NCBI RefSeq assembly: GCF_013391695.1
Contig: NZ_JACBGH010000001.1
Coordinates: 310,001-374,000 of the forward strand
Direction: 5' to 3'
DNA length: 64,000 nt
From: Thiomicrorhabdus cannonii
GTDB lineage: Bacteria > Pseudomonadota > Gammaproteobacteria > Thiomicrospirales > Thiomicrospiraceae
Made by a program: the position numbers and the translations under genes. Within the stretch, counting starts at the first letter, position 1. Each line of letters opens with the position of its first letter. Of this stretch, positions 43,680 through 60,447 are shown piece after piece. The notes under the pieces are model-generated. The model was given only the letters and a program-made list of their open reading frames with translations, had not been told where the DNA came from and did no database searches.

Positions 43680-43686
43680 AGAATAA

Positions 43687-43700
43687 TGGCGCGCCCGAAG
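43687..43700. repeat. attL, displaced tRNA-Arg 3' end
   Basis: TGGCGCGCCCGAAG, identical to 60434-60447, the last 14 nt of tRNA-Arg including encoded CCA. It marks the left boundary of the element. Confidence 0.85.
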
Positions 43701-43849: not shown

Positions 43850-45055
43850 ATGAAACGGAATCTTACGGACATCGCTGTCAAAAAACTAAAGCCACTGGAC
43901 AAGGCCTACAAAACGACTGATGGCGGAGGGCTCTATATTCTGACCACCCCTACAGGCACTAAAACTTGGCGCTATGACTGTTCAATTAATGGAAAAAGAG
44001 CCACGCTGACCTTTGGCGAATACCCAACATTAAGCCTTGCAGATGCAAGAAAACAACATGAAGAAACCAAGGCACAAATTAAAAGTGGAATAGATCCTCG
44101 CAAGGCAGAGCAAGTTGATGAGCACTTAAGCCTCCCTTTTTCCCACTACGCCCTTGAAATGATGAAAACCCAAGAGCTACGCGACAGCACTTACGCAAAA
44201 AAGCTCAATCGCATGAAAAAGCACCTCTTTCCAGTGCTCGATAAAATGCCTGTTACGAAAATCACCAGTATTGATTTGCTTAACTTAATAAAACCGATTG
44301 CTGTACACGGAAAAAGAGAAACAGCCCAACTGCTAGCAACATACTGCAGACAAACATTCGATACGTTAATGTCTCTACAACTTATTCAGATAAACCCTGC
44401 TGAAAGCATCTCAAGACTAATTCCAAAGCCCAAACAATCACAAAATTTTGCCCACATTACGTCACCTCAGGAATTCGCAAGCCTGTTAATCGGTATAGAT
44501 AACTATCATGGAGACTTTGCCGTCAAAAAGGCCTTACAGTTAGCACCTCTGGTCATACTCAGACCGCATAACATTCGTTTTTTAAAGTGGAGATACGTAA
44601 ACTTTAGGGACAAGCTTATTACCATCCCAGCTTATGAGATGAAAATGAACCGTGACCACAAAATTCCATTATCGAGGCAGGCGCTAGCAATTTTAGAGGA
44701 AATGCATCAAGCCACCTCTGACAAGGAATTGGTATTTATCTCATCACGAAGCAAAAACGATAAAGAAATGAGCGAAAACACGCTTAACCAAGCTGTGATT
44801 AGAATCAAAGACCCAATCACCGGCGAACCATTAGGCAGAGGAACCATGACTTCTCATGGCTTTCGACATACCGCCTCCACCCTTCTAAACGAACTTAAAT
44901 TCTCAGCCGACGCAATTGAGTTGCAATTAGCCCATGTTAACAAAGACCGCATAAGAGCCACTTACAACAAGGCCGAACTCATGGAAGAACGCACCGAAAT
45001 GATGCAAAAATGGGCTGATTACCTAGATAGTTTGAAGAAAATTCAAAATATTTAA
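43850..45055 (+). CDS. P4-type tyrosine integrase
   Basis: Site-specific recombinase for integration and excision. The 401-residue protein starts with the DUF4102 arm-binding domain (KTTDGGGLYILTTPTGTKTW, then RATLTFGEYPTLSLADAR), followed by a core-binding SAM-like region. The catalytic domain has R238 in LRPHNIRFLKW, the HGFRHTAST box (H336, R339), H362 and nucleophile Y372 in RIRATYNKAE. AAGGGA precedes the ATG. It lies next to attL and points into the element. Confidence 0.95.
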   Translation: MKRNLTDIAVKKLKPLDKAYKTTDGGGLYILTTPTGTKTWRYDCSINGKRATLTFGEYPTLSLADARKQHEETKAQIKSGIDPRKAEQVDEHLSLPFSHYALEMMKTQELRDSTYAKKLNRMKKHLFPVLDKMPVTKITSIDLLNLIKPIAVHGKRETAQLLATYCRQTFDTLMSLQLIQINPAESISRLIPKPKQSQNFAHITSPQEFASLLIGIDNYHGDFAVKKALQLAPLVILRPHNIRFLKWRYVNFRDKLITIPAYEMKMNRDHKIPLSRQALAILEEMHQATSDKELVFISSRSKNDKEMSENTLNQAVIRIKDPITGEPLGRGTMTSHGFRHTASTLLNELKFSADAIELQLAHVNKDRIRATYNKAELMEERTEMMQKWADYLDSLKKIQNI

Positions 45056-45381: not shown

Positions 45382-46098
45382 ATGCAGAAGAAAGTATTGA
45401 TTACGCTCGCTCTATTGGCTTTTAGTGCAAGCGTTATAGCCGGGATTTCTGGAAGCTTTGAACAAGCCAAAGCGAATATGTATAAAGGTGTCTATCAGAA
45501 TGTCGGCACAACATTTTATACAGGCTGTGACTGGTCTAAAAAGAAAGTGGATTTAGCTAGCTGCGGGCTACAAAATTCGTTTCCAAAAGGACAGTTAAAG
45601 CGTGCTTCGAGAACAGAAGCAGAACACGTAATACCCGCCAGCTGGTTTTATAAAAAGAACGGAAAGTGGCGTGCTTGTTACAGCCAGGCAAAAGCGATTA
45701 AAGAGAACCCCAGGGAGTATTGCCAAGCTCACGATGATGAGTACCGCAATGCGCATAATGACCTAGTTAACCTTCGACCCGCCGTCGGCCAGATTAATGC
45801 AGACCGCTCGAATAAACCATTTTCAGATAGCGTTTCCGGGGATGGAGTTGAGACCTTTCGAGGAAAGGGATTGACTATAAAAATTACCAGCCGCGTTGCA
45901 ATCCCTGATGTAAAAATCCGAGGCGACATAGCCAGAATCGGCTTTTATATGGCAGAAAAGTACGGTGTTACGTATTCAAAACGGCAGTTGGAGCTGTTCC
46001 AGGAATGGGATAAATCGGACCCAGTTGATGATGCAGAACGTGAATTGAATAACCGGATTATGAAGGTTCAGGGACTTGGGAATGCATTGGTAAAATAA
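45382..46098 (+). CDS. endA: Endonuclease I (EndA/NucM-like) periplasmic nuclease
   Basis: 238-residue secreted nuclease with signal peptide (cleavage near residue 20, SVIAG). The beta-beta-alpha-metal catalytic region has RTEAEHVIPASWF (catalytic His) and NAHNDLVNLRPAVGQINADR (metal Asn). The family C-terminus EWDKSDPVDDAERELNNRIM is complete. Such enzymes degrade incoming or extracellular double-stranded DNA. As cargo of an element with a restriction system it may block entry of other DNA. Confidence 0.92.
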   Translation: MQKKVLITLALLAFSASVIAGISGSFEQAKANMYKGVYQNVGTTFYTGCDWSKKKVDLASCGLQNSFPKGQLKRASRTEAEHVIPASWFYKKNGKWRACYSQAKAIKENPREYCQAHDDEYRNAHNDLVNLRPAVGQINADRSNKPFSDSVSGDGVETFRGKGLTIKITSRVAIPDVKIRGDIARIGFYMAEKYGVTYSKRQLELFQEWDKSDPVDDAERELNNRIMKVQGLGNALVK

Positions 46099-46100
46099 AC

Positions 46101-46558
<458 letters not shown>

Positions 46559-47004
46559 CCCGCCTTAAACCCCGTATCAATCCAAATTTGGTTTCCACAA
46601 TATGTATGTGCACCATTTCCCAACATGTTTTTCTTATACAATTTTTTTCATAAAAATTGGTCAAATAAAGGCATTTTTCCTATCAATTTCAAGGCCTCTC
46701 CCCCTGTTACTCTTGCAATCCTTCTTGATTAAAAAATCTATCAAAATACAGCTCAGAAACGGCTAATATTGTTGCAAATAAAGGCCTCTTTATACCTTTA
46801 AAAGTGCAAAATGGAGTGCGGCCACTAGAAAAAACGGCTCAATCAAACAAAATACGCGCAAAAAACAATCGCTATATGTGTTTGATTTTTTTAAATAAAA
46901 TTCAATATGAGGTACATTTTTTGATTCATTTTGCACATCATTTTATCGCGCATTTTGATAGCCAAAATAGATGAGTTCATGCAAATAATTAGTGAAGAAA
47001 AGAT
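46559..47004. other. 446-nt AT-rich region without genes
   Basis: I see no credible reading frame, RNA or repeat in this stretch. Confidence 0.5.
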
Positions 47005-47337
47005 TTATTCTTTTTGGGGAGGTGCTTGACCTATCTTTACTGTCACTCTCAGCAGTCTAGCCCAATTAATAGCTTGGCCTTTGTCACAATGACAGCTATG
47101 CAACGCGACAAGAATTCGACCCGAAAGCAAAAACCATAAGCTCTTTAAAATGAGCAAAAATGTACTCAGCCAACTGGGAATTCTTTCATAGTCTAAACAT
47201 GCATACCCAAACGACTTACTGGAACATTTGTCAAAAAAGATAAGCTCATCAACCATCCAAGACAAAACCCTATGGATTTTTTCCTGGTCAAGAGGCTGTC
47301 GAAGTCCATTTGCAGTTGTTACGTGTACGCTGTTCAC
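47005..47337 (-). pseudogene. Fragment of nrdA (ribonucleotide reductase ATP-cone)
   Basis: A 110-codon frame. Residues about 5-31 (VTTANGLRQPLDQEKIHRVL, then SWMVDEL) match the N-terminal ATP-cone of class Ia NrdA, including KIHRVLxW. After about residue 35 the match ends and the rest looks unrelated, with a hydrophobic stretch. The fragment keeps the extreme N-terminus of a gene whose functional copy must lie elsewhere, probably carried in by recombination. It could be expressed as a short protein, but I see no ribosome site. Confidence 0.55.
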
Positions 47338-47908
47338 TTTGCTATCGCTATTAATTCTAAATTTACCGTTTTAAACAACCCTCAATACTGCTTTATTGAG
47401 AAGCTATCTGGTCATGAGAAATGATTGTTCCTCATGAATTTCAAGTGTTTTAAATGCCTTTAAAAAAACTGTAGTAAAACATTTAAATCCCTCATTTCAT
47501 GAAATTAAGCATCTGGTTTTATTTAATCGTCCTCATTGCGGCCCCCTATCAAATTTGAGTGGATTGAATCTCTTTTTTAATTCAAAAACCAAGGTAACTT
47601 CTCAAACAATCTCCTTTAAGCAGTAAGACAAAAAATACCCAGCAAAACTTATTCGAGCTAATGCTCAGTAGTACCAACAGAACTAAGTCGTGTATGAACT
47701 TAAATTCGTTCGGTAGCTGTTGATGGATTCTTTTTCTATCTCTATTTTTCAGTAAAGTATGTTTTTTGTTCTTCCTATTCAAAAGTGAATCCCACAATAT
47801 TGAAGAGGAACAAACCAAAAACACTTGAATGCCACAAACGGTAATGGCGAATCTGAATTGAATGGTCTGCTAAAACTGAGTAGCCCTAGCAGACATAACT
47901 ACATTTGA
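47338..47908. other. 571-nt region without convincing genes
   Basis: AT-rich. An 80-codon minus-strand frame (47582-47824) is low-complexity, hydrophobic and lacks a clear ribosome site, so I do not call it. Confidence 0.45.
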
Positions 47909-48139
47909 TTAACCGTTGGTTGTTTTAGGGTCATTGCCGTAGCTGTGTTTTGCACGGATTTTCCCTGTATCCCCTCGATGAATTGAAACCTCGGAACCAG
48001 AGTTTTTTGCAAACTCACGCGTAGCTTCAAAAACATCTTTTTGGGTGCTTCCAACAACACTTGCTCTTGTGGCGTCTTGACGTTTCCCACGCCATTGGCC
48101 ATCAGAACCTTGATATACGTTGTAATCTTTATCAGACAT
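47909..48139 (-). CDS. DUF2188-like small protein
   Basis: 76-residue soluble protein starting MSDKDYNVYQGSDGQWRGKR, followed by a Lys/Asp-rich middle (STQKDVFEATREFAKNSGSE) and VSIHRGDTGKIRAKHSYGND. The pattern V-x-x-x-xGW/QW ... A...A ... G..V.IHxxdGkIr matches DUF2188, small proteins of unknown role common in mobile DNA. The ATG at 48139 has GGAG 8 nt upstream. Confidence 0.75.
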   Translation of the reverse strand: MSDKDYNVYQGSDGQWRGKRQDATRASVVGSTQKDVFEATREFAKNSGSEVSIHRGDTGKIRAKHSYGNDPKTTNG

Positions 48140-48420
48140 CTGATTTTCTCCAAATAAACTAAAAATGATAGTGCCCCTCCTGCGCAAAGCAGGAAAGGCA
48201 TAGAGCTAAATCATCGCGGTAAACGACGACAATGCTGTCTTACGTGCTCCGTTCGCCCATGGCGACGACGAGTGTAAGCTGACACTAAAACAACTTTGCT
48301 TTGAGTGCATTGCATACTTAGCCCTCCTTTTATCTCTGGAGGCTTAATCGACAAACTGATATGAATTCTGTAGAATCGTCAATGCTACTTTTCGATTTTG
48401 TCTATCAGAATCGGTATCAG

Positions 48421-48455
48421 AGACGGGTGTGCCTCTAGTTGCACCTGTCTTTTTC
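48421..48455 (+). terminator. Intrinsic terminator of an unknown plus-strand transcript
   Basis: 10-bp stem AGACGGGTGT / GCACCTGTCT (two G-T pairs) with a CCTCTAGTT-type loop, followed by five T residues. No plus-strand gene precedes it within the 650-nt gap, hinting at a small RNA. Confidence 0.5.
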
Positions 48456-48559
48456 CTAAAAGACCATTTCTAAACTCCTGAAACACAATATAGTGTATTC
48501 ATAACAAAAATAAAACACTATAAAATGAGCATATAGAGCGATATTTTCGGGATATTTTC

Positions 48560-48655
48560 TGTGGATAAGTGCCTAAACCACTTACAAAAACGCGCTTAAA
48601 GCCCTGTGGATAAGACTGTGAAAATTTAAATATTTTTTCTTTTTTATTTCAAATG
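48560..48655. other. Candidate replication origin of the element
   Basis: Two perfect DnaA boxes TGTGGATAA in the same orientation (48560-48568 and 48605-48613), then a tract of almost only A and T (48620-48650). The element carries its own primase and helicase-like ATPase, so autonomous replication is plausible. Confidence 0.45.
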
Positions 48656-48792
48656 CTTAGAAAAAACTAGACTGCATAATACATTGAGAGCTTTCGATTC
48701 TGAAGAAATACTCGTGGAGTATAGAGATAGGCTAATGTGTGATTGATGAGGCTAGAAGCCCCCCCTGCAAATCGGTTGCAATTAAATGTGAT

Positions 48793-49836
48793 TCAATGCA
48801 ACCCTTCTTTTGAGGTTTTGAATTGAGTATCAACGAAGTTTAACGACTCATCCAAATACCATTTATAGACTTGTTCAAAGAGGGCCTTTCCTTCGGAAGC
48901 GGTAGTTTTCGACGATTCAAAGAACTTCAAGTCGTTATTTTCATCTTCAATAGCCGACTCAGTAAATCCATGAATAGCCTTATTCCTGGCTAAGCGCCAA
49001 TCATCAAGACTATTCAGCAACTCTACGACTTCACCTTGTTTGCCAATGCACTCTTTAGATGTTTGGATGAGCTTGGCAAAATTAAGATTTCTGGCATCAA
49101 TTTTTTTGGCTTTTAAATAGTTAAACAGACAATGACTGATTAAACTTTCCTGAAGAGAAATGGCCTCCAAGAAGAAACCAGCAGCCATAGCCTGTTCAAT
49201 TTTATGGGCACCACGCTTATATGCTAACGCTTTCGTCTCCAGTTCAGCCTTAGCCTTGTCGAACCCCTTACCTTCCCGAGTCGACTTGTGCAAAACCTCA
49301 AAATGACTATACCCATACTCTTCTGCCATTTTTCTATCCGCGGCCTTTATGAACGTCCAGAACTTGTCATGAAAAGTTTGGATAAAAGCTTTAACAAGAA
49401 CCCATTCAGGTTTCACCCATGCGTAGTACATGCCTCCGTTTATTGGCTTGGGAATTTTTAATATCGTATGTCCAATACCAGACACCCAGGATTCCATCAC
49501 CTTGACTAGACCTGCCACATGAATAAATGTTCGGGAACCTTCGGGATAAATATGAGCCATATTGGGCGTCCAATCAATTAACGTCTGATGCCGTATCCAC
49601 AGATTCAACTCTTCTTCATCAGAAGAAGAGTTTTTCAAAAGCTTTATCAAAAGACCATGAATTTTCTCTGGAGGTATCTTTGCCTGTTTAACATCATCGT
49701 AAATAAAGCAGGTACTCAACATTACACAAAAATACTCCAAGTCCAATCGTCCTTGAGAATTTATAAATTCATAGTGCTTTATATTCTCAAGAAGCAGCGT
49801 CTGGTCTCTGTAAAACTCACTACCTTGCTTAATCAT
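48793..49836 (-). CDS. HEPN-like protein at the end of the type I R-M operon
   Basis: 347 residues, no signal or membrane segment. The C-terminal half is helical (FFLEAISLQESLISHCLFNY, then KIDARNLNFAKLIQ) and holds RNKAIH (R284-H289). That fits the HEPN RNase motif Rx4-6H with a polar residue after R. HEPN domains occur in anticodon nucleases and abortive-infection toxins. The N-terminal half (YDDVKQAKIPPEKIHGLLIK) is not recognised. It starts 6 nt after hsdR and is the last gene of the operon. RNase activity is an inference from the motif. Confidence 0.65.
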   Translation of the reverse strand: MIKQGSEFYRDQTLLLENIKHYEFINSQGRLDLEYFCVMLSTCFIYDDVKQAKIPPEKIHGLLIKLLKNSSSDEEELNLWIRHQTLIDWTPNMAHIYPEGSRTFIHVAGLVKVMESWVSGIGHTILKIPKPINGGMYYAWVKPEWVLVKAFIQTFHDKFWTFIKAADRKMAEEYGYSHFEVLHKSTREGKGFDKAKAELETKALAYKRGAHKIEQAMAAGFFLEAISLQESLISHCLFNYLKAKKIDARNLNFAKLIQTSKECIGKQGEVVELLNSLDDWRLARNKAIHGFTESAIEDENNDLKFFESSKTTASEGKALFEQVYKWYLDESLNFVDTQFKTSKEGLH

Positions 49837-49842
49837 CTAGTC

Positions 49843-52674
49843 TCACTCCGGCGCCCCATCAATAAACGTCTTGATGTAATCCAGCACTTTGTCTAAAACC
49901 CGCTGCGAAACTGTCTTCCGTTTCAAGATGGTAGGTTTGGTGTTCATGGTTTCCACCACATCATCACGGTATGGCAGTTTTTCTGTGAAGAGGTAACTTG
50001 AGATGAGTTTTTTGACCTTGTCTGAATCCAAGTCTTCTTCCGAACAGAGTCGTTCGATTTCAGCTTTGTCCTGCTCTTTCCAAAATTCTTTGAAGCGTTC
50101 TTCGACATCCGAGCCGCTTTGAAGCAGTGGCATGTTTTCTTGGATGAACTTCTCAATCAATTCTTTCTTGGAGCGCATCTGTACGTCCCCGGAAAGCATA
50201 TCCAAGATGTTCTTCTTGCGCGTTTCCTGTTCCGGTTCTGGGGCATCCTTCATCTGACCCAATAGTTTCAGGATGTAGGTGACATTGATTTCATCTCGGT
50301 GGATGAGTTCAAGCTCAAAATCCACATCATTCAGAATCGAGACTTTTTCTGTCTGGCGGTTGCTCTTTACTTTGTCGTAAAGGTCGAGGTATTTGCTGCC
50401 ATAATCTGCATATTCCTGCTCGTCCATGGCCACATCATTGAAATCGAAATTTGTGAAGGTGACCAACACGTTATAGATGCGCATCAGGTCACGATAGGCT
50501 TTGATAAAGAGGAACTCGTCTTCTTCCGTTTGCAGTTGATTAACGCTATCGACATCAGGAGCAATGGCTTTTAGGTTTGCCAAAGCCTCGTTGAACTGCT
50601 TCACATAGCTCTCATACGGCTCCATTATGATGGTGTCTTTGGCGTTCTTGTCCGAGAACAATCCAATCGCATCATCAGTGGCTTGCTTGAGGTTACGGAA
50701 GCAGACGATATTACCTTGGGACTTCTTGTCGCCCATAATGCGGTTGGTGCGCGAGAAGGCTTGAATCAATCCGTGATATTTGAGGTTTTTGTCCACGTAT
50801 AACGTGTTCAACGGTGGCGAATCAAAACCAGTAAGGAACATATTCACCACCAGCAGAATATCGACCTGCTTTTCTCGAACACGTTTAGCCAATTCGTTGT
50901 AGTAGTTGTAGAACGATTGGCTGTCCTTTGTAGTGTACTTAGTGCCGAACATCGCATTGTAATCGCCAATGTAGGATTCCAATTTATCGCGGCTGTGCAA
51001 GTTAATCTGTTTTCCACTCACATCGGTGGTTTCTTCTGCAATACCGTCGTCAGCATCTTTATCGTTCTCATTGGCGGCATAACTGAAAATAGTACCGATT
51101 CTGAGATTGTGCTCCCCTGCTTCTTTCTTGCGTTGGAAAATATCATAGTAAGCCGTCAGCATTTCTACCGAACTGACACAGAACATACCTGTAAATTCTT
51201 TGGCATGGGTTTTACGGTCATGGTTGGCAATAATGTAATCGACCACCGCTTCCAAACGCTCCGGCGCTTCCATCACCTCTTTTGTGTCGATGGCCTGAAC
51301 TTCTATATCCTGAATGACATTATGCTGTTTGAAGGTACTGATGTACTCCACCGAGAATTTAAGGACGTTCTCATCACGAATCGCATCGGTAATCACGTAT
51401 TTGTGCAGACACTCGCCGAATAGGTCTTTAGTGGTACGTTTACCAAACAGGTTTCCGGTGACGTTCTCGGCAAAGATAGGTGTGCCGGTAAACCCAAACA
51501 TCTGATAGTGGTTGAAGTATTCAGTGATGCGTTTATGGGTTTCCCCAAATTGGCTGCGGTGACATTCATCAAAAATAAAGATGATGTGTTTGTCCTTGAG
51601 CGGTTCCATGGCTGACTTATAACGGTCTTTCATAATCGCCGTGTTCAGCTTTTGGATGGTGGTCACAATCAGCTTGGTATCGGTGTCACCGAACTGTTTC
51701 ACCAGTTTATGGGTGTTGTCGGTACTATCGACACTGCCTTCACTGAATGAGTTGAACTCTTTGGCGGTTTGATAGTCGAGGTCTTTGCGGTCAACGCAGA
51801 ACACAACCTTATCGACATTAGGCAAATTGGTCAGAATCTGACTGGCTTTGAAGGAAGTAAGCGTTTTACCCGAACCGGTGGTGTGCCAAATATAACCGTT
51901 GTGAACCGAGTTCTTCACCTTGTCGATAATCGCTTCTACCGCATAGTATTGATATGGGCGCAACACCATGAGAATTTTATAGGTCTGATTCAGAACGATA
52001 TACTTGGTAATCATTTTGGAGAGATGGCACTTCTCCAAAAACACCCGCGAGAACTGTTCAAGCGGCGTAATCAGGTTATTATCTTTGTCTGACCAAAAGA
52101 AAGTCTGTTTAAAAGACTGTTTGCGGTTGTTGGCGTAGTATTTGGTGTTAACGCCATTACTAATGACGAACAACTGAATGTATTGGAACAGCCCTACTCC
52201 CGAACCGTAGGAATGGCGCTGATAACGATTGGTTTGGTTGAAGGCTTCTTTTAATTCCAGGCCACGTCGCTTCAGCTCCACCTGCACCAATGGCAAACCA
52301 TTAATCAGAATGGTCACATCATAACGGTTTTGATACTCGCCCTCTATGGTCACTTGATTAGTGACTTGGTACTGGTTCTGACACCACTCGACCTGGTCGA
52401 TGAAATTGATATAGAGCGTTGAACCATCATCACGAGCAAGGTTGTATTTGTCGCGCAGGATTTGGGCACGTTCGTACACATTCCCTTTGTTTAGATGATT
52501 TAGAATCTTGGCAAACTCGCCCTCAGAAAATTTCGTTTTATTGTGCTTCTCCAACTGACGCTTGAGATTGGCCAACAGGTCAGATTCGTTTTCGATGATG
52601 ACCCGTTCATAGCCTTGGCCTGCGAGCTGAGTGACAAGGTTGTTTTCGAGGGTTTGTTCAGATTGAGTACTCAT
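49843..52674 (-). CDS. hsdR: Type I restriction enzyme R subunit HsdR
   Basis: 943-residue motor and nuclease subunit. N-terminal PD-(D/E)xK nuclease with D119, E133 and K135 (RYDVTILINGLPLVQVELK). SF2 helicase Walker A HTTGSGKT (K270), DECH box (369-372), GFTGTPIF and motif VI QAFSRTNRIMG. The C-terminus is helical and binds HsdM. Somewhat shorter than EcoR124 HsdR (about 1040 residues) but all motifs are present. It lies 9 nt after the 189-aa gene. Confidence 0.95.
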   Translation of the reverse strand: MSTQSEQTLENNLVTQLAGQGYERVIIENESDLLANLKRQLEKHNKTKFSEGEFAKILNHLNKGNVYERAQILRDKYNLARDDGSTLYINFIDQVEWCQNQYQVTNQVTIEGEYQNRYDVTILINGLPLVQVELKRRGLELKEAFNQTNRYQRHSYGSGVGLFQYIQLFVISNGVNTKYYANNRKQSFKQTFFWSDKDNNLITPLEQFSRVFLEKCHLSKMITKYIVLNQTYKILMVLRPYQYYAVEAIIDKVKNSVHNGYIWHTTGSGKTLTSFKASQILTNLPNVDKVVFCVDRKDLDYQTAKEFNSFSEGSVDSTDNTHKLVKQFGDTDTKLIVTTIQKLNTAIMKDRYKSAMEPLKDKHIIFIFDECHRSQFGETHKRITEYFNHYQMFGFTGTPIFAENVTGNLFGKRTTKDLFGECLHKYVITDAIRDENVLKFSVEYISTFKQHNVIQDIEVQAIDTKEVMEAPERLEAVVDYIIANHDRKTHAKEFTGMFCVSSVEMLTAYYDIFQRKKEAGEHNLRIGTIFSYAANENDKDADDGIAEETTDVSGKQINLHSRDKLESYIGDYNAMFGTKYTTKDSQSFYNYYNELAKRVREKQVDILLVVNMFLTGFDSPPLNTLYVDKNLKYHGLIQAFSRTNRIMGDKKSQGNIVCFRNLKQATDDAIGLFSDKNAKDTIIMEPYESYVKQFNEALANLKAIAPDVDSVNQLQTEEDEFLFIKAYRDLMRIYNVLVTFTNFDFNDVAMDEQEYADYGSKYLDLYDKVKSNRQTEKVSILNDVDFELELIHRDEINVTYILKLLGQMKDAPEPEQETRKKNILDMLSGDVQMRSKKELIEKFIQENMPLLQSGSDVEERFKEFWKEQDKAEIERLCSEEDLDSDKVKKLISSYLFTEKLPYRDDVVETMNTKPTILKRKTVSQRVLDKVLDYIKTFIDGAPE

Positions 52675-52683
52675 GCTAAACCA

Positions 52684-53253
52684 TTAAAACTCAATGCTCG
52701 GCGTTTGGTATTTTTCTAAAATTTTGGGATGAGATTGACATAAAGGAAACAAAAACTTTGTTATAGCACTTTGTATGACGCTGATTAGCTGTTGGATTTC
52801 CAGTAATTCTTCTTCGGAAAGATAAAGCCATTCAATATGCTGTATATGAGGTATTTTTATACTGGAAGAATCGCCAGGTTTGGTGAGCTCTGTATCGATT
52901 ATATCAACCCTAAAGTGCATAGCTTCCTCATCGGTATGGGCAATAATTTTATCGCGCAATTTAATAACCTTGTCCATTAATACCTGCTGCTTTTCATCGA
53001 GCCTTAAGCCAATTAATTTTAAACCTAGTGTACTCGCTCTTCTTGCCTTAACAAAAGGCCTTGCAAAAGAAACTATGGCTTGAGATTCAAAACATCTAAA
53101 TCTTCTAAGCTCTACCTTGCTATACTTTTTATCAAAATCGATGTCCTCCAACAAAAAAGTTAATGCTGATTGTGCTTGCTGCAAATCCCAGGAAGAAGCA
53201 ATAACTCTGTTCAATTGAGTTTCCGTTGGAAGTTGAGAAGTATTTTCTGTCAT
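52684..53253 (-). CDS. HEPN-like small protein between HNH and hsdR
   Basis: 189 residues, helical. LMDKVIKLRDKIIAHTDEEA contains R100-x5-H106 with Asp after Arg, the spacing of HEPN catalytic motifs. N-terminal region with RRFRCFESQAIVSFARPFVK. It sits 9 nt before hsdR and 46 nt after the HNH gene, the slot used by prrC in the EcoprrI operon. No ATPase domain, unlike PrrC. Could be a toxin or a regulator of HsdR; the alternative is a non-catalytic HEPN fold. Confidence 0.6.
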   Translation of the reverse strand: MTENTSQLPTETQLNRVIASSWDLQQAQSALTFLLEDIDFDKKYSKVELRRFRCFESQAIVSFARPFVKARRASTLGLKLIGLRLDEKQQVLMDKVIKLRDKIIAHTDEEAMHFRVDIIDTELTKPGDSSSIKIPHIQHIEWLYLSEEELLEIQQLISVIQSAITKFLFPLCQSHPKILEKYQTPSIEF

Positions 53254-53299
53254 CCTGTGAACCTAAGTTAATTTTCTACTAGAGTTAGATTAATAATGA

Positions 53300-54127
53300 T
53301 TACTCTTTAGGCTTGGCCATATAGGAGAACTTATCACTAAATAAAGTCATCTCATGGTCTTGTGGCATTTCAGGATAGTTCAACGATGGAACCCCGTGCA
53401 AATCAACCAAGGCATGAACTTCACTATCAATCCCAATACTTTTATTTTGCAAAAGACTGCGAAATCCTATCTTGAAATCTTCTGGCTTATCCCACACTAA
53501 CCAAAATCCAAGGGGAAGAAACTTTATGACGTGCCCAAAAATAGATTTGCCTGTCCCCAAAATCCCTTTTGCTACATTTTTCATAACGACCTGATTGTTT
53601 GAAGGATACAACCAATAGTAAATTTCTAATGAATCTGGCAACGGCAAAGTTTCATCTAGGAAATATTCTCTCATAGCAGATGACATAGGTGCGTCTACCA
53701 ACCCAGATTGAGCTTCATCAACTGCAATGGCGGCCAAGACATGCCCAACCACAGACCTCGCTACCCTTTGGGGTTTGATATCTACACCAGTTACTCGTGG
53801 CAACACAACCAAATCACGACTTTTCCCTAAAGCTAATCCGGTTATCGCATTAGAAAATTCAACTAATGAAGGGTCATACTCCGTCCCGAGTAAGTGACTA
53901 TTACAGTTGGTACATATCGTCTGAAAGTGAGTCCCTCCTTGGGACGTAGATTTTTCACTGCTATGCTGTAAAAGAGTTTTCAGCTCAACACTTTTCAGGT
54001 TATTACATTTTTTGGGAGGTACGTGGTCTCTAGTTAATTTGCCATAATCGCCACAGATAACACAGTAACCTTCTTTAGGCCCTCGTGTGGATATTCTTCG
54101 TCGTAATCTATCAGAATAATTGCCCAT
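53300..54127 (-). CDS. HNH-type endonuclease-like protein in the R-M operon
   Basis: 275 residues. N-terminal treble-clef HNH pattern: C22 and C25 (YCVICGDYGKL), DH at 34-35 (TRDHVPPKKC), C72 and C75 with H78 (ICTNCNSHLLG). The remaining 190 residues have no recognised domain (SLEIYYWLYPSNNQVVMKNV; FLPLGFWLVWDKPEDF). It starts 9 nt after hsdS. Likely a DNA nuclease added to the type I system; the target is unknown. Confidence 0.75.
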   Translation of the reverse strand: MGNYSDRLRRRISTRGPKEGYCVICGDYGKLTRDHVPPKKCNNLKSVELKTLLQHSSEKSTSQGGTHFQTICTNCNSHLLGTEYDPSLVEFSNAITGLALGKSRDLVVLPRVTGVDIKPQRVARSVVGHVLAAIAVDEAQSGLVDAPMSSAMREYFLDETLPLPDSLEIYYWLYPSNNQVVMKNVAKGILGTGKSIFGHVIKFLPLGFWLVWDKPEDFKIGFRSLLQNKSIGIDSEVHALVDLHGVPSLNYPEMPQDHEMTLFSDKFSYMAKPKE

Positions 54128-54136
54128 ACCACATGC

Positions 54137-55288
54137 CTACACAAACATCTTCTGTAACAAGCCTTTTTTAAAGGTTTTGGTTTGTTCAAGTTCTACCCCA
54201 ACCTGGTAGATTTTTTGGTCTAGGGCGGTTAGAAAGTCAGCGATTTTTTGCTGCTCACTAATAGAAGGAACTGGTAGTTCAAGCTCTTTGATAATCTGAG
54301 CAGACAAGTTCCCTTGACCACCTTGTAAATATGTAGATAAAATTCTTTGCTTACTAAATCTTAGCCAACTAAAAATGTAACTCTTAACTTGGTCAGTTCG
54401 AATACATAAAACAGCCTGGTTTATGGCTCCTTTGAGCTTTGATATAGCAACCTCACCACTTGTTGCACCGTATAGTGCATACAAGATATCACCGACATCA
54501 ATCATCTTTGCTGATGATTCTTTTAAGGCTTTTTCTGTAATATATTGTTCTGTTCGTTCTGAAGCAATTTCTCCAGATTTAACAAAAGGGATATTTCCTA
54601 AATATAGCTTTTTATTCGTACTTGAAGGAGTACCACCAGAGAAAAATGAGGCTATTTTTTTCAGTTTGACTGTCTTCCACTCAGGATAATCATTCCCTTC
54701 ATCATCTTTAAAGCGGATTTGTTGGGTGAAGATTTGTTGCATGACGCCTTTTTTGTATTCGGTGAGCAGGCGGTGTTTTTCGGTGAGTTGTTCGATTTTT
54801 TTATCGACCGAACTTAAAAAATCAGCGATTTTTTGTTGTTCTTGCTCACTGCAAAAATTAGCTTTAACCCTCTCTATTACATCAACGGAAAGTCCCGGTT
54901 GTGCTTGCCCCGTAGCAAACCTATTAAGATGCAATCTATCCAATTGATAGTAAAGATAAAGTGGAGTGTGGCCTTTTTTGGGAGTTACCGTGACTGCGTG
55001 TTCAGTCGCATGAAATTTCCCATGAGCTAATTGAATATTTCCGCAAAGTGCGCCTTGCCGTCCAATTAAAGGAAACAGACCTTCATGAGTAAAGGATTTG
55101 GTGTAGCCACGTAAGCCATTGCCACCATAACAAGGAAAGGTTTCATCAGATGCCTCATCGAAAATATTTTTTGCAGCGACAAACTTTCCAGCTTTTAATT
55201 TACAAACCTCAAATAAGGGCTTCTTAACCCAATCATCTTGAAACTCAGAAAACCTTAACTCAGGGACACTTCTCTTTACTGCATTCAT
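54137..55288 (-). CDS. hsdS: Type I restriction specificity subunit HsdS
   Basis: 383 residues with two target-recognition domains. Each is followed by a conserved helical repeat: EQQKIADFLSSVDKKIEQL near residue 155 and EQQKIADFLTALDQKIYQV near residue 345. The first domain contains CYGGNGLRGYTKSF, the second FSGGTPSSTNKKLYLGNIP. The TAATG overlap with hsdM couples translation. The two near-identical repeat segments at DNA level (54237-54259 and 54822-54838) could allow domain exchange. Confidence 0.95.
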   Translation of the reverse strand: MNAVKRSVPELRFSEFQDDWVKKPLFEVCKLKAGKFVAAKNIFDEASDETFPCYGGNGLRGYTKSFTHEGLFPLIGRQGALCGNIQLAHGKFHATEHAVTVTPKKGHTPLYLYYQLDRLHLNRFATGQAQPGLSVDVIERVKANFCSEQEQQKIADFLSSVDKKIEQLTEKHRLLTEYKKGVMQQIFTQQIRFKDDEGNDYPEWKTVKLKKIASFFSGGTPSSTNKKLYLGNIPFVKSGEIASERTEQYITEKALKESSAKMIDVGDILYALYGATSGEVAISKLKGAINQAVLCIRTDQVKSYIFSWLRFSKQRILSTYLQGGQGNLSAQIIKELELPVPSISEQQKIADFLTALDQKIYQVGVELEQTKTFKKGLLQKMFV

Positions 55289-56862
55289 TAAAATGGCGCC
55301 TCAATACCCAGTTGTTTGCAATAGTCAGCAATCACCGCATCGGTTTGCTTCATGTCTTTATCGATGGTTTTGATTTGTGCGGTGACGGCAGCAAGGTCAA
55401 TCGGCTCTTCTTCCTCAAAGGTATCAACATACCTTGGAATATTGAGGTTGTAGTCGTTCTCTTTGATTTCACTTAATGGTGCGACGTAGCTGTATTTCTC
55501 AATCGTTTGACGGTTGTGGTAAGTCTGAACAATCTTTTCAATGTGCTCAGGTTTTAGGACGTTCTGGTTTTTGTTTTTCTCAAAGTCATTGGAGGCATCA
55601 ATAAACAGAATGTCATCGGGATTGGTGCGGCACTTTTTGAACACCAAAATACAGGTTGGAATTGAGGTGCCGTAGAAGATATTGGCAGGTAAACCAATGA
55701 CGGCATCCAGATAGTTGCGGTCTTCAATCAGATATTGGCGAATATGCCCTTCTGCCGCACCACGGAACAAAACGCCATGCGGAAGTACGACTGCCATAGT
55801 GCCGTTATCCGCCAGGTGATGAATCATGTGCTGTACAAAAGCAAAGTCGGCTTTGGTTTGTGGAGCGAGTTTGCCGTATTGCGAAAAACGGTCATCACTT
55901 AGAAACAGTTGATTGGCTGACCAATGCGCAGAGAATGGCGGATTGGCAACAATCGCTTCAAACTGCATGCCCAAATGCTGGGGATGTTCTAGGGTGTCGT
56001 CCTGTTTGATGTCGAACTGTTTGTAGTTCACATCATGCAGAATCATATTCATGCGTGCCAAGTTATAGGTGGTACGATTAAGTTCCTGACCATAGAAATG
56101 ACCGACTTCGTTGACCTCTTTGGCCACGCGCAGTAACAGCGAGCCAGAACCGCAAGTTGGGTCATAAACGGATTTGAGATAACTCTTATCGTCGGTGACG
56201 ATTTTAGCCAAGATGGTAGAGACAGTTTGCGGAGTGTAGAACTCCCCTGCTTTCTTACCTGCACCGGAGGCAAATTGGGCAATCAGGTATTCGTAGGAAT
56301 CACCCAACACATCGGCATTGGCGTTTTCCAATTCGAAATCGACCTTATCCAAGTGTGATAGGATTTTAGCGACTAGCTCGTTCTTCTGTTTTTCAGTCTT
56401 GCCGAGCTTGGTGGAGTTGAGGTCCAGGTCTTCGAAGAGCTTGTTGAAGTCATCCTCGGACTCAGTACCCATGGTGGACTGTTCAATATTGTTCAGGATA
56501 TTTTGCAGGTCAGCCAGGATGAAATTATCGGATGCCTCGCCTTCTTTGGACGCGCCCTTTTTGGCAATGGCTGAAAAGAGTTCAGAAGGCTTTAGGCTAT
56601 AGCCAAGTTTCTCAATCGCTTCTTCAGAAACAGCGGTGACAATCTCTTTGCCATCGGCACTGTTTTCATCAATATCAGCGTAGCTTAGTCCATCTTCGGC
56701 CAACAGACTGTCGGCATACAAGCAAAGCTTTTCAGAAAGATATTTGTAAAAGATGAAACCAAGAATGTAATCACGGAATTCATCCGCATCCATCTTGCCG
56801 CGCAAGGCGTTGGCAATATTCCAAAGTTGTTGTTCGAGGAGTTTCTTTTCTTCTTCTGACAT
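55288..56862 (-). CDS. hsdM: Type I modification methyltransferase HsdM
   Basis: 524-residue N6-adenine methyltransferase. The N-terminal helical domain has QQLWNIANALRGKMDADEFR, SAM motif I DPTCGSGSLLLR (234-245) and catalytic motif IV NPPF (307-310). C-terminal SYVAPLSEIKENDYNLNIPR is typical of the EcoR124 (type IC) branch. It is the first gene of the six-gene operon; a TATAAT at 56925-56920 (minus) with a weak -35 is a candidate promoter. Confidence 0.96.
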   Translation of the reverse strand: MSEEEKKLLEQQLWNIANALRGKMDADEFRDYILGFIFYKYLSEKLCLYADSLLAEDGLSYADIDENSADGKEIVTAVSEEAIEKLGYSLKPSELFSAIAKKGASKEGEASDNFILADLQNILNNIEQSTMGTESEDDFNKLFEDLDLNSTKLGKTEKQKNELVAKILSHLDKVDFELENANADVLGDSYEYLIAQFASGAGKKAGEFYTPQTVSTILAKIVTDDKSYLKSVYDPTCGSGSLLLRVAKEVNEVGHFYGQELNRTTYNLARMNMILHDVNYKQFDIKQDDTLEHPQHLGMQFEAIVANPPFSAHWSANQLFLSDDRFSQYGKLAPQTKADFAFVQHMIHHLADNGTMAVVLPHGVLFRGAAEGHIRQYLIEDRNYLDAVIGLPANIFYGTSIPTCILVFKKCRTNPDDILFIDASNDFEKNKNQNVLKPEHIEKIVQTYHNRQTIEKYSYVAPLSEIKENDYNLNIPRYVDTFEEEEPIDLAAVTAQIKTIDKDMKQTDAVIADYCKQLGIEAPF

Positions 56863-57220
56863 AGTTCTCTAGCTTGATTAACTTGTTCTGACGGGGATAA
56901 TTATTTTTAATGAAGATGAATTATAAGTAACTTGACGAATTCATAAAAAGTTTTTTGAGATTCTTTGAATGCCTCCCCCTCCTAGGTACATCATTTTTAG
57001 ATATGAGAGTTAGCAATCTGACCTGACAAGATATTCGTCGGCTAGTAGTTTAATTAGTTTATTTGTTTAAATTCCAAGATGAAGGTACCGTACAAACACC
57101 CCGCATTTTTCTTGGAATTTTTCTGAAAAACCTACCTAATGTCAGAATTAAACCAATTAAACTACCTAAAACAAAAAGGGGCCATACAGCCCCTAGATAT
57201 CCAAATATCAACAACCCAGA
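56863..57220. other. 358-nt gap: hsdM promoter region and upstream terminator
   Basis: Holds a minus-strand TATAAT (56920-56925) about 60 nt before hsdM with a poor -35, and the terminator of the ATPase gene. No gene seen. Confidence 0.45.
57172..57194 (-). terminator. Rho-independent terminator after the helicase-like gene
   Basis: Minus strand AGGGGC / GCCCCT stem with a 6-nt loop and TTTTTG, 26 nt after the stop of the ATPase gene, isolating the hsd operon. Confidence 0.75.
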
Positions 57221-58870
57221 CTAACTTGTCACCATCTTTTCAACACGCCAAAGCATCTTGTTACCCTCCTTCGTTACAGAACGCAACACTAAATCCTTAA
57301 CCTGCCTATCCTTTCGATATGTTAGCAATCGTCCAATTGAGCGTGAATTGAGCTTATTATTTGTCCAATCTACTAAAATATCATGTAAATCTGTGCAACT
57401 TTCAGAACCGCCCGAAGAATTCACAGAATCAACAAGCTGACGAGAGGAAAATACATTACCGTTATAAATCGCATCCACTGCCACCAACAATTCATACAAT
57501 GCTTCTTGCTCAGGGTCACTCTTCTGAGCTCTATCAAATGCATCCATTGGGTCATGCTTCAGCCATGTCCAGTTATGTTTTGCCAGCCACGCCACGGGCT
57601 GTCTCACAAGACTATCCCACTCTTCAAATGATGCAAGACTTCCGATAGAGTAAACACCATTTTTATAATCCGAACTAGTTAACCACGCTTTTACAATCGT
57701 TAGTCCAGCCGCAACCAATTTGATACGATTAGTTTTGACGTACTGAACAGGGTCAAAATCAAAGCGTCTTTTATATGGTTCCGGAGTCTTGGGGTCAATT
57801 CGGATAATTGGAATACGTCTTGGCATGTCACCAGCCAGCACAACATTATTTCCGGTCATTAGAAACAGTAAATTTACTGGCAGTGTTTTTGTCTGACTTT
57901 CACCCAAAACCCTATCAGTTAAAGATGAAGATGTCATCGCAGCTGCAAGCGCGGGACTATCGAACTGACCAACTACATTGTCCAAAATAATTGTTTTAAC
58001 TCCTCTTAACAACTCTGCGAATAGGCGTTTGCGATTCTCGTCATCGCTTTTAGAGGCAATATACGGTAAGACGCTTGGACTCTCGGTTTCTGGATACATT
58101 AATGAAGCAATCGCCGTAGCCAGAAGGGTTTTACCGGAAGCTTGGTAAGGAGCATCAATTGCAAAGCCCGGACTAGTCGCTAAAACGGGTCGCATAATCG
58201 CGCTTAACAGTGCCGTCAAAAGTAATTCTTTGTCTAAATCATTAGCAAATGTGAAGTCTTTAAAAGGAAACATGACCTCTTTAAGAGCACAACTAATCTC
58301 TTTTTGCGTTAGAACATCGGGGACATTAAAGTCTTTAACACAATACTCTGTTAAGAAAAGACCCGTCTTTGAATCGTAACCAGGATTGCGCAAAAGAGAA
58401 CCATCTTTTCGCAGAACTGGAGCAGAGATAACACCTCTCAATTTCTTGAGGCCTCTTTGACTTCCAAGACTCAGTAGTTGCTTAACCAACTTTACGGGTG
58501 GATCTATATATTCTTTAACTGTCTCTTTTTTTACCCTTTTTTCGATGACAAATTGAATATTCTCACCCAACCAGTATGCAAGTAAATTTTCATTTTGCGG
58601 TTGCACCGATAAGTCTTTAATCACAACCAGCTGTTCGCCTAAATCAAATACATTTTGATGGTCTTTTAAAATTTCAATAGTTGCGTTGACAGCCTGACTC
58701 ATTTTTCCATCAGCAACAGTGATAAATGGCTTAGATTTTGCCTGAAGCTTTGAATCATTAGACGCTAAAATGTCTTGTCTATTCAGTTCAGCATCCGCTA
58801 ACAATGCCTGTCGAATTGGCAATACCGTGGCATAAATCGATTCAACTTCATTATCCAAAAAATTATGCAT
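57221..58870 (-). CDS. P-loop helicase-like replication ATPase of the element
   Basis: About 549 residues. A P-loop with GKT at 246-248 (FAIDAPYQASGKTLLATAIA), a Walker-B-like KTIILDNVVG and a sensor-like LLFLMTGNNVVLAGDMPRRI. This arrangement is common in phage/plasmid replicative helicases fused or paired with primases. I start at the ATG at 58870 because GGAGG lies 6 nt upstream and it overlaps the primase stop by 8 nt. Likely unwinds the element's origin. Confidence 0.8.
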   Translation of the reverse strand: MHNFLDNEVESIYATVLPIRQALLADAELNRQDILASNDSKLQAKSKPFITVADGKMSQAVNATIEILKDHQNVFDLGEQLVVIKDLSVQPQNENLLAYWLGENIQFVIEKRVKKETVKEYIDPPVKLVKQLLSLGSQRGLKKLRGVISAPVLRKDGSLLRNPGYDSKTGLFLTEYCVKDFNVPDVLTQKEISCALKEVMFPFKDFTFANDLDKELLLTALLSAIMRPVLATSPGFAIDAPYQASGKTLLATAIASLMYPETESPSVLPYIASKSDDENRKRLFAELLRGVKTIILDNVVGQFDSPALAAAMTSSSLTDRVLGESQTKTLPVNLLFLMTGNNVVLAGDMPRRIPIIRIDPKTPEPYKRRFDFDPVQYVKTNRIKLVAAGLTIVKAWLTSSDYKNGVYSIGSLASFEEWDSLVRQPVAWLAKHNWTWLKHDPMDAFDRAQKSDPEQEALYELLVAVDAIYNGNVFSSRQLVDSVNSSGGSESCTDLHDILVDWTNNKLNSRSIGRLLTYRKDRQVKDLVLRSVTKEGNKMLWRVEKMVTS

Positions 58871-59945
58871 ACACAACCTCCTCACTGACTTTCAAATTCA
58901 ACCTGTTAAAGTCATTCCAATCAGTACCTTTTTCTCCATGCTTAAAATAAGGGATAAAGAGTTTGCCTTTGACTGCAGCTGCCGCATCCATCGCGGCTTT
59001 CAAGCCTGGATTAGCCGGATTTTGATGGTCGTTATCACCAGCAATCACTAACAGAGCATCTGGAAATGTCTTGCGTAAAAACTTACTGACTGATTTAAGA
59101 TTGTTCGATGTAAAACAACACACAACAGTACAGCCCTGAGCTTGATGCTCTGCCAAACTGGCGCTCGTTGCATACCCCTCGCAAATAAAAATCACTTCTG
59201 AACCTACCCATTGAGTGACAAAAAAACCACCGCCGATTTTGCTGCCTTTGAAGAAGGACTTCTGGCCATCAGGTGAAATCATCTGCACGCTTTGCAAGTC
59301 TGCTTCAAAAGGAGCAACCGTTCCGTAAATCGGGATTATCAACTGATTCTTGCGACCGGCGAAGTCACCTACAAAAATCTCACCTTTACATTGCACCTGT
59401 TTGCTCAACAAATAAGGATGCTCATCCGTGGCGGGGTTGAAACAGCTTAGAATTTTAAAAAGCCGTCCAGCGACTTCGACGTATTGCGCTTCCTTGCCCC
59501 CTTCATCGACAGTCGCCTCGTCTCGTTTTTTAAGATTTGACATCTGTCTTTGAAAGGTCGCGTCTCTGGCAAAAACCTGATACCCATTCTCTTTTGCCAT
59601 GTAGTACAGCGTTCCGATTGAGATTTGGCCATCTGAACGGATGCTTTTCCACGTCGATTCAAAATCCTTGGCAATATAGCTATCTGAACCCGCAGACCAA
59701 TTCCGAGTAACCTCTTTGGCGGCATCGCCAAACTCACTTTTGATGGCCATCATTACCTTGACCCAATCCGCTCTAGGCATGCCTGGGTCTAAGCAATTCA
59801 ACATGTCATCTGCCTGCTCTAAAGAAAAACCTGGCATCTTTTGATTTTGAATGTTAATATTTTTTTGCACTTTGAAAGAACTTTGCTTGCCGGCATCCAC
59901 TTCTGTTAAAGTGCAAATCTCTTTTTCTAGTATGTTTGTACTCAT
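58863..59945 (-). CDS. Primase with PriCT-2 and Toprim-like domains
   Basis: 360 residues. A PriCT-2 segment (GMPRADWVKVMMAIKSEFGD, then SYIAKDFESTWKSI) precedes a Toprim-like domain: EVIFICEGYATSASLAE (catalytic Glu), VIAGDNDHQNPANPGLKAAM (DxD-type) and GTDWNDFNR. Typical of primases encoded by plasmids and phage satellites. It overlaps alpA by 4 nt (ATGA) and the ATPase gene by 8 nt, so the three form one replication/regulation unit. Confidence 0.85.
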   Translation of the reverse strand: MSTNILEKEICTLTEVDAGKQSSFKVQKNINIQNQKMPGFSLEQADDMLNCLDPGMPRADWVKVMMAIKSEFGDAAKEVTRNWSAGSDSYIAKDFESTWKSIRSDGQISIGTLYYMAKENGYQVFARDATFQRQMSNLKKRDEATVDEGGKEAQYVEVAGRLFKILSCFNPATDEHPYLLSKQVQCKGEIFVGDFAGRKNQLIIPIYGTVAPFEADLQSVQMISPDGQKSFFKGSKIGGGFFVTQWVGSEVIFICEGYATSASLAEHQAQGCTVVCCFTSNNLKSVSKFLRKTFPDALLVIAGDNDHQNPANPGLKAAMDAAAAVKGKLFIPYFKHGEKGTDWNDFNRLNLKVSEEVVYA

Positions 59946-60427: not shown

Positions 60428-60433
60428 TGAATA

Positions 60434-60447
60434 TGGCGCGCCCGAAG
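60434..60447. repeat. attR within tRNA-Arg
   Basis: TGGCGCGCCCGAAG, the 3' end of tRNA-Arg, identical to attL at 43687-43700. Confidence 0.85.

What the first reader, a model, noticed from the sequence alone, without database searches (positions are those of the whole stretch)
48793..56862. Six-gene type I R-M operon with an HNH nuclease and two HEPN-like proteins
hsdM-hsdS-HNH-(189 aa)-hsdR-(347 aa) are spaced by -1, 9, 46, 9 and 6 nt, so they are almost certainly co-transcribed. The 189-aa protein has RDKIIAH (R-x5-H) and the 347-aa protein RNKAIH (R-x4-H), both fitting the HEPN RNase motif Rx4-6H. In EcoprrI, prrC (a HEPN anticodon nuclease kept silent by the R-M complex) lies between hsdS and hsdR, the same slot. 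A type I enzyme guarding one or two RNases plus an HNH nuclease would be a layered defence that kills the host when phage disables restriction. I know of no described system with this gene set.
Basis: partly seen in the sequence, partly recalled or inferred. Interest (0 to 1): 0.88.

Follow-up and report, generated by a model that had tools for sequence, protein, structure and literature searches.

The report
R-M operon with swappable RNase-like cargo
A DNA-cutting bacterial immune operon, carried on a mobile island, has picked up one DNase-like gene and two genes that look like RNA-cutting toxins; related operons carry different extra genes in the same slot, so this is one load-out of a known kind of carrier and not a fixed new system.

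Summary
The six genes, strand, spacings and both Arg/His motifs are as reported. hsdM-hsdS-hsdR is an EcoR124-like (type IC) system. The HEPN idea mostly survives. In the 347-aa family RN-x3-H is invariant in 6 of 6 aligned sequences, and its C-terminal domain is modelled as a HEPN-like bundle. In the 189-aa family R-x5-H is invariant in 9 of 9, but fold searches were inconclusive.

The 'six-gene system' does not survive. The five closest operons (HsdR 81-86%) hold other genes between hsdS and hsdR, such as Fic, NYN, putAbiC and HipA/DUF3037. Of 22 operons with the slot visible, 17 are filled and 5 empty. Sampled relatives of the accessory genes mostly have no hsdMSR operon beside them. The operon sits in a 16.7-kb tRNA-Arg element with an empty site in a relative.

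HEPN genes in R-M operons and defence cargo between hsdS and hsdR are published (PMC3710099, PMC12255303). Best reading: an R-M carrier with exchangeable, probably independent cargo. A PrrC-like guard is not excluded, least of all for the 347-aa protein, which follows hsdR in two genomes.

The parts
55288..56862 (-). hsdM, type I (IC-like) adenine methyltransferase, 524 aa
   Evidence: Pfam N6_Mtase E 2.3e-113 and HsdM_N; TIGR00497 hsdM above cut-off; PDB EcoR124II M protein E 5.1e-116; 84-90% identical in the 5 closest operons
54137..55288 (-). hsdS, specificity subunit, 383 aa, two Methylase_S stretches
   Evidence: Pfam Methylase_S E 1.2e-40, 2 stretches
53300..54127 (-). accessory gene 1: HNH_5-like putative nuclease, 275 aa
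   Evidence: HNH_5 E 0.0018, below cut-off; phrog_21495 (unknown function) E 5.2e-26; C22-x2-C25, H35, C72-x2-C75-N76 invariant in 5 of 5; relatives in 8 of 340 class genomes, own included, and 74 plasmid records
52684..53253 (-). accessory gene 2: 189-aa predicted HEPN-type (AbiU2-like motif) RNase
   Evidence: HEPN_AbiU2 E 0.0097, below cut-off; R100, H106, D108 invariant in 9 of 9, own included, and R-x5-H-x-D kept in a tenth sequence; AF2 model pLDDT 80 with the motif at the end of the third long helix
49843..52674 (-). hsdR, restriction/translocation subunit, 943 aa
   Evidence: HSDR_N, SWI2_SNF2, T1R_D3-like, EcoR124_C; PDB HsdR 2w00 E 4.2e-186
48793..49836 (-). accessory gene 3: 347-aa protein, N-terminal part without known family plus HEPN-like C-terminal domain
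   Evidence: no Pfam, PADLOC, NCBIfam or PHROGs match; R284 N285 H289 invariant in 6 of 6, own included; best Foldseek hit is a HEPN domain, 1o3u, TMt 0.69, E 0.32; 44% homologue directly after hsdR in G005
52675..54136 (-). hsdS-hsdR cargo slot (1,462 nt), variable between related operons
43850..45055 (+). tyrosine integrase of the island
   Evidence: Arm-DNA-bind_3 and Phage_integrase
43686..43700 (+). att-like direct repeat, left end of the island (15-nt exact core)
60433..60447 (+). att-like direct repeat, right end, at the 3' end of tRNA-Arg(ACG) 60434-60510 (- strand)
   Evidence: empty site in G036
58863..59945 (-). island primase (PriCT_2 + Toprim_3)

Best explanation
This is a type IC-like R-M operon carried by a 16.7-kb integrative element in a tRNA-Arg gene. 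The operon acts as a promoter-sharing carrier: ready-made defence genes sit between hsdS and hsdR and after hsdR, and are swapped over evolutionary time. Here the cargo is an HNH-type putative DNase, a 189-aa HEPN-type protein with an AbiU2-like motif and a 347-aa protein with a C-terminal HEPN-like domain. Shown: gene order, co-orientation, R-M domain set, conservation of the Arg/His motifs, HEPN-like predicted fold of the 347-aa C-terminus, different cargo in closely related operons, island ends with an empty site in a relative. Inferred: co-transcription, metal-independent RNase activity of both HEPN-type proteins, DNase activity of the HNH protein, and a phage-induced dormancy or death role as independent extra layers that sense infection on their own.
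For: The five closest operons (HsdR 81-86%, HsdM 84-90%) carry different cargo in the same slot. DNA similarity to them ends within 4 nt of the hsdS stop, at the hsdM ATG, and within 2 nt of the hsdR stop except in L018, which shares the 347-aa gene. Of 22 operons with a visible hsdS-hsdR interval 17 are filled (630 nt or more) and 5 empty (45 nt or less), with recognisable toxin/defence families: Fic, RhuM, AAA_13, YhcG, NYN/HEC-09. Sampled relatives of the accessory genes mostly have no hsdMSR beside them. GC3 of the accessory genes is 0.32-0.41 against 0.52-0.57 for hsdM/hsdR. Motifs conserved. HEPN hits for the 347-aa model; weak CARF_HEPN and HEPN_Cthe2314 profile matches over the same part in relatives. 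Published parallels: TgvAB (PMC11411939), DarTG2 (PMC12255303), HEPN-RM linkage (PMC3710099).
Against: No activity data. For the 189-aa model none of the 50 PDB hits shown (of 273) is named HEPN, and none of the 50 BFVD hits shown (of 456), many of which have no useful name. Profile comparison with two AbiU2 proteins aligns only 16 columns around the motif, probability 4%. For the 347-aa model no Foldseek hit reaches E 0.001, 5 of the 50 shown (of 208) bear HEPN in the title, and designed or coiled helical proteins stand among them. On the hsdR side DNA similarity between operons starts only 27-97 nt inside hsdR, so that junction is not sharp. hsdS also has low GC3 (0.32), so composition alone does not mark cargo. 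The 347-aa gene follows hsdR in two genomes and these two form one clade, which hints at more than free exchange. Two plasmid neighbourhoods do hold other DNA-modification or restriction genes. One distant relative of the 347-aa family has lost the Arg.
Confidence: 0.6

Rival explanations
1. PrrC-like guard: the assembled HsdMSR complex holds one or both HEPN RNases silent, and release (anti-restriction protein, complex disassembly) unleashes RNA cleavage and abortive infection. Most plausible for the 347-aa protein, whose N-terminal part would be the docking or sensor part.
For: prrC is embedded in a type IC R-M locus and its product is silenced by that R-M (passages of PMC12707154 and PMC3710099); the R-M here is EcoR124-like. 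The 347-aa gene lies directly after hsdR in two genomes (+6 nt here, 4-nt overlap in G005), and the two hsdR-linked proteins are sisters, support 1.0, on a six-sequence unrooted tree. PMC3710099 proposes this release model for HEPN-RM pairs.
Against: Sampled relatives of all three genes occur without an adjacent hsdMSR. No ABC-ATPase domain. 44% identity of the 347-aa pair against 86% for HsdR gives no sign of tight co-evolution. 4 of the 5 closest operons lack the 347-aa gene and 5 of 5 lack the 189-aa gene.
Confidence: 0.2
2. Selfish or TA-like stabilisation: the cargo makes the island hard to lose, with the R-M or a neighbour acting as antitoxin, and phage defence is secondary.
For: Integrative island with integrase, att repeats and an empty site. 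Related operons carry toxin-type genes.
Against: No family match marks an antitoxin in this operon. The plasmid and genome relatives fetched show no constant partner gene by eye in the tables; no systematic partner test was made.
Confidence: 0.1
3. Ordinary hitchhiking: accessory genes landed in the operon and have no function linked to defence, or the HEPN-like proteins only bind RNA.
For: No functional data. Some HEPN domains are thought to act without RNase activity, mainly those that lack the motif (PMC3710099, passages).
Against: Catalytic-type motif invariant in 9 of 9 and 6 of 6 aligned sequences. Slot content of related operons includes recognised toxin/defence families again and again.
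Confidence: 0.1

Closest known systems
EcoprrI-PrrC (type IC R-M with embedded HEPN anticodon nuclease; PMC12707154, PMC3710099, passages)
   Same: EcoR124-like R-M with a HEPN-type gene inside the locus
   Different: No ABC-ATPase domain, two different HEPN-type genes, one of them after hsdR, an added HNH gene; silencing by the R-M untested
RptR-RMS-DarTG2-M48 island of EPEC (PMC12255303, passages)
   Same: Toxin genes embedded between hsdS and hsdR; the authors call the site a potential recombination hotspot
   Different: DarTG2 and an M48 peptidase instead of HNH and HEPN genes; RptR was not looked for here
TgvAB embedded in the type I R-M of V. cholerae VPI-2 (PMC11411939, abstract and sections 5, 10, 11)
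   Same: Defence module embedded in a type I R-M operon on an island; also found outside R-M
   Different: GmrSD-type type IV restriction pair, not HEPN/HNH
HEPN-R-M associations incl. AbiU2, PrrC/RloC with RhuM or Fic/Doc (PMC3710099)
   Same: HEPN genes in R-M operons as a second, suicidal layer; Fic and RhuM also seen in related operons here
   Different: The 189-aa and 347-aa proteins and the relatives scanned stay below the cut-off of every Pfam HEPN model

Membership tests
Type IC R-M (EcoR124 family) | hsdM, hsdS and hsdR with full domain sets, EcoR124-type HsdR C-terminus | tested here: met
   EcoR124_C E 1.6e-66 and the other HsdR/HsdM/HsdS domains; best solved HsdR is 2w00, followed by entries named EcoR124II R; HsdM matches EcoR124II M, second to 3lkd
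HEPN superfamily (347-aa protein, C-terminal domain) | R-(N/D/H)-x3-5-H conserved in the family | tested here: met
   R284 N285 H289 invariant in 6 of 6; kept in a 147-aa domain on three viral contigs; lost (C for R) in 1 distant relative; not checked in the split relative L054
HEPN superfamily (347-aa protein, C-terminal domain) | four-helix bundle with the motif at the end of helix 3 | tested here: met
   helices 192-218, 222-243, 269-294 (motif 284-289), 301-332; block pLDDT 79-94 over 191-330 except 58 at 291-300; Foldseek rank 1 is HEPN 1o3u, probability 1.00, TMt 0.69, though E is 0.32
HEPN superfamily (189-aa protein) | R-(N/D/H)-x3-5-H conserved in the family | tested here: met
   R100, H106 invariant in 9 of 9; a tenth sequence keeps both
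HEPN superfamily (189-aa protein) | four-helix fold related to solved HEPN domains | tested here: inconclusive
   helix order and motif position fit, but no HEPN is named among the 50 hits shown of 273 (PDB) or of 456 (BFVD)
Pfam HEPN_AbiU2 | score above the curated cut-off | tested here: not met
   15.8 bits against 26.8; four relatives scanned also below or without match; profile comparison aligns only 16 columns
HNH_5 nuclease | score above the curated cut-off | tested here: not met
   18.6 bits against 27.5; relative L085 20.6 bits; the Cys/His frame is conserved 5 of 5
PrrC-type guarded anticodon nuclease | ABC-ATPase domain fused to HEPN | tested here: not met
   no such domain in either protein
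PrrC-type guarded anticodon nuclease | silenced by the R-M complex; cleaves tRNA | not testable with these tools
   needs experiment
Defence cargo embedded in type I R-M | accessory gene(s) between hsdS and hsdR, absent or different in related operons | tested here: met

The most novel reading that the evidence does not exclude
The 347-aa family is a new kind of R-M-coupled RNase: an uncharacterised N-terminal sensor/docking part fused to a HEPN domain, held by HsdR and released when restriction is inhibited, a PrrC-like guard without an ABC-ATPase. A second, independent HEPN-type protein and an HNH nuclease in the same operon would make a three-layer response.
Probability: 0.17. Interest if true: 0.75.

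Novelty: new variant of a known kind. Interest (0 to 1): 0.45.

Why it matters
It adds two predicted RNase families that the libraries searched here do not name (nothing above a Pfam cut-off, no NCBIfam match for the window proteins, no convincing PADLOC or PHROGs match). It also gives a natural series: operons with 81-86% identical HsdR whose slot content differs, with several junctions within a few bases of gene ends. That makes two questions testable: how cargo enters a type I R-M operon without breaking it, and whether the R-M merely shares its promoter or actually guards the toxins.

Tried and rejected
Close-relative scans for the 189-aa and 347-aa proteins in viral contigs found nothing, nor did the single-protein genome-contig scan of the 347-aa protein. 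Alignment queries gave 5 genome loci for the 347-aa family, 4 viral-contig loci for the 189-aa family, none and then 3 viral-contig loci for the 347-aa family. Plasmid tblastn of the 347-aa protein: none; phage tblastn of the 189-aa protein: none, of the HNH protein: 3 records. Sequence searches of solved structures with the three family profiles gave no HEPN or HNH entry.

I rejected 'conserved six-gene system' because no other genome searched had the set. I rejected the bare motif as evidence because 31 of 49 ORFs carry it, and a firm AbiU2 assignment. A scan for AbiU2 relatives in viral contigs found none, so the AbiU2 profile rests on two sequences. Paper searches: (listed 20 of 49, 25 of 54, 1 of 1, 8 of 8, 15 of 3,124, 15 of 33, 15 of 2,864). 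No title or abstract start in those listings describes this gene set; I read only the passages or sections named in the report.

Slot survey, rows left out: one search gave 23 matches, one of them the window's own. I fetched 11 operons; one fragment lies inside L018; I left out 10 matches (G002, G016, G034 twice, G044, G045 twice, G053, and the second hits of G043 and G054). From all 6 others were fetched. From, 7 of 9 others (G467 and G674 have next to no upstream sequence). Three of the 24 fetched loci (L060, L064, L066) are cut at a contig end before hsdS and are not in the count of 22. Interval ends were typed by hand; the printed 1460 for the window should be 1,462.

Neighbourhoods: I fetched 4 of 9 plasmid records for the 189-aa protein and 4 of 74 for the HNH protein. 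The test for R-M neighbours was BLASTP against the six window proteins plus the record annotation, so a very different R-M could be missed.
Full report
Observation. The six ORFs, their strand and spacings are as stated. hsdM, hsdS and hsdR are clear type I genes with an EcoR124-type HsdR. The HNH gene is a weak HNH_5 match and the 189-aa gene a weak HEPN_AbiU2 match, both below the curated cut-offs; the 347-aa protein matches nothing in Pfam, PADLOC, NCBIfam or PHROGs. The HNH protein belongs to phrog_21495, function unknown (E 5.2e-26). The bare R-x4-6-H motif has no weight alone: 31 of 49 window ORFs of 150 aa or more contain it.

Is the 189-aa protein HEPN? Relatives on plasmids and viral contigs (20-33% identity to it over the alignment) and the protein itself keep R100, H106 and D108 in 9 of 9 sequences; these are 3 of only 7 invariant columns. 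A tenth sequence keeps R, H and D. The AF2 model (5 sequences, pLDDT 80, pTM 0.74) has long helices, with the motif at the end of the third one and a beta hairpin soon after it. [quoted passage not shown] But no HEPN is named among the hits shown (50 of 273 in the PDB, 50 of 456 in BFVD), and hhalign against two AbiU2 proteins aligns only 16 motif columns, probability 4%. The motif and helix order fit; the fold is not proven.

Is the 347-aa protein HEPN? R284, N285 and H289 are invariant in 6 of 6 full-length sequences, its own included, of 33-81% pairwise identity. A 147-aa domain, identical on three viral contigs, is a stand-alone version of its C-terminus and keeps RNTAVH. One distant relative (G109) has lost the Arg. 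The AF2 model is poor over the N-terminal half (block pLDDT 35-65 up to residue 170) and good over 191-330 (79-94, except 58 at 291-300). Its best Foldseek hit is HEPN protein 1o3u (probability 1.00, TMt 0.69, rmsd 3.6, E 0.32); 5 of the 50 hits shown bear HEPN in the title, beside designed and coiled helical proteins. Relatives weakly match HEPN_Cthe2314 (two of the four full-length ones scanned, E about 0.02) and CARF_HEPN (one of three scanned, E 0.007) over this part. I take the C-terminus as HEPN with good but not final support.

Is it one system? In 62 genomes of the order the 189-aa protein occurs only in its own genome and the 347-aa protein in two. In class samples the counts, own genome included, are 3 of 274 for the 347-aa protein, 2 of 340 for the 189-aa family and 8 of 340 for the HNH family. 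I looked at 4 of 9 plasmid records for the 189-aa protein and 4 of 74 for the HNH protein; no hsdMSR operon lies within the fetched flanks of up to 8 kb. The neighbourhoods are not free of DNA-modification genes: L007 has a gene annotated restriction endonuclease 1.1 kb away, and L009 a cytosine methyltransferase 2.7 kb and an N-6 methylase 7 kb away. Seven further HNH loci and one 189-aa locus gave no BLASTP hit to the other window proteins; in one of them (L088) the HNH gene runs off the contig. Of the 5 genome loci of the 347-aa family none is next to hsdMSR by the same test; one of them (L053, the same contig as G099/L019) has a Schlafen-type gene with weak HsdS-like similarity upstream.

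What sits in the slot elsewhere? The five closest operons, HsdR 81-86% identical, carry: a 191-aa ORF plus an hsdR N-terminal fragment plus Fic (L018); putAbiC plus NYN/HEC-09 (L044); a 310-aa ORF plus Fic (L045); a 347-aa ORF with a sub-threshold pentapeptide match, unrelated to ours (L046); two small ORFs that I read as a RelBE-like pair (no call behind that), then HipA_2 and DUF3037, PADLOC PDC-M66A/B (L047). None has the HNH or 189-aa gene. Only L018 has the 347-aa-family gene, again directly after hsdR, and that operon lies between two Mutator-family transposase genes of equal length and score. DNA similarity ends within 4 nt of the hsdS stop, at the hsdM ATG, and within 2 nt of the hsdR stop except in L018; on the hsdR 5' side it starts only 27-97 nt inside the gene. 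I fetched 24 further operons; with the window, 22 show the whole hsdS-hsdR interval, of which 17 are filled (630 nt or more) and 5 are empty (L063, L065, L068, L070, L074). One of the 17 (L059) holds only a 125-aa ORF without a Pfam match. Among 25 cargo proteins of 11 operons only 6 pairs are similar at E 1e-3, three of them Fic pairs. More distant operons (HsdR about 40%) carry RhuM, AAA_13, YhcG, AAA_14/DUF4143 and Fic, some also between hsdM and hsdS; a zeta-toxin-like gene precedes hsdR in L064, where hsdS is not visible.

The two hsdR-linked 347-aa proteins are sisters with support 1.0 on a six-sequence unrooted tree, at 44% identity against 86% for the neighbouring HsdR. This could be one acquisition followed by fast divergence, or two from one pool; I cannot tell which.

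The carrier. A tyrosine integrase (43850-45055), a 15-nt exact repeat at 43686 and 60433 (the latter at the 3' end of tRNA-Arg) and a second repeat pair at 43803 and 60352 mark an element whose repeats are 16,747 bp apart. In relative G036 the two flanks (80% and 87% identical) abut, overlapping by 20 bp, so the site is empty there, and G036 has no HsdR match at E 1e-30. The element also holds a primase and an endonuclease I gene.

Known or new? PMC3710099 (passages and section 10) reports at least 16 HEPN clades linked to R-M, lists AbiU2 in R-M operons, and proposes the PrrC-like release model. PMC11411939 (abstract, sections 5, 10, 11) shows TgvAB inside a type I R-M operon and cites RloF between hsdR and hsdS. 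PMC12255303 (passages) shows DarTG2 between hsdS and hsdR and calls the site a potential recombination hotspot. PMC12707154 (passages) covers PrrC, embedded in a type IC locus. So the arrangement is a new combination in a known category, with two HEPN-type families that the libraries do not name above cut-off.

Mechanism. I think most likely that the R-M cuts unmodified DNA as first line, while the cargo proteins are separate abortive-infection layers with their own triggers, kept together by a shared promoter and by mobility. Guarding by the R-M remains possible, most of all for the 347-aa protein. No step of RNA cleavage, sensing or silencing has been tested here.

Noticed in passing
window 43686-60447: 16.7-kb integrative element in tRNA-Arg(ACG) with tyrosine integrase, 15-nt direct repeats, second repeat pair (43803-43828 and 60352-60377, 96%) and an empty site in relative G036.
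   Followed up: yes
L018:182-13399: The related R-M operon of G005 lies between two Mutator-family transposase genes of the same length and Pfam score, like a composite transposon, and holds an 80-aa hsdR N-terminal fragment ahead of a Fic gene.
   Followed up: partly
L062:4103-5561 and L067:6320-7810: The same two-gene cargo (337/342-aa protein plus a small Fic, 47% and 45% identical) sits before hsdR in two different genomes: a possible Fic module with its own partner.
   Followed up: no
L060:158-574 and L067:11969-12379: NTase_sub_bind (PF08780) genes next to hsdR or between hsdM and hsdS in two related operons.
   Followed up: no
L085:5989-7599: An HNH relative (51%) lies 48 nt from a NYN/OST-HTH gene, a possible DNase plus RNase pair.
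   Followed up: no
window 47909-48187: Small DUF2188 gene just downstream of the operon, inside the island.
   Followed up: no
G000:C1:113345-114280: A second N6_Mtase gene with a strong match (E 1.4e-92) elsewhere in the same genome, possibly another R-M system.
   Followed up: no
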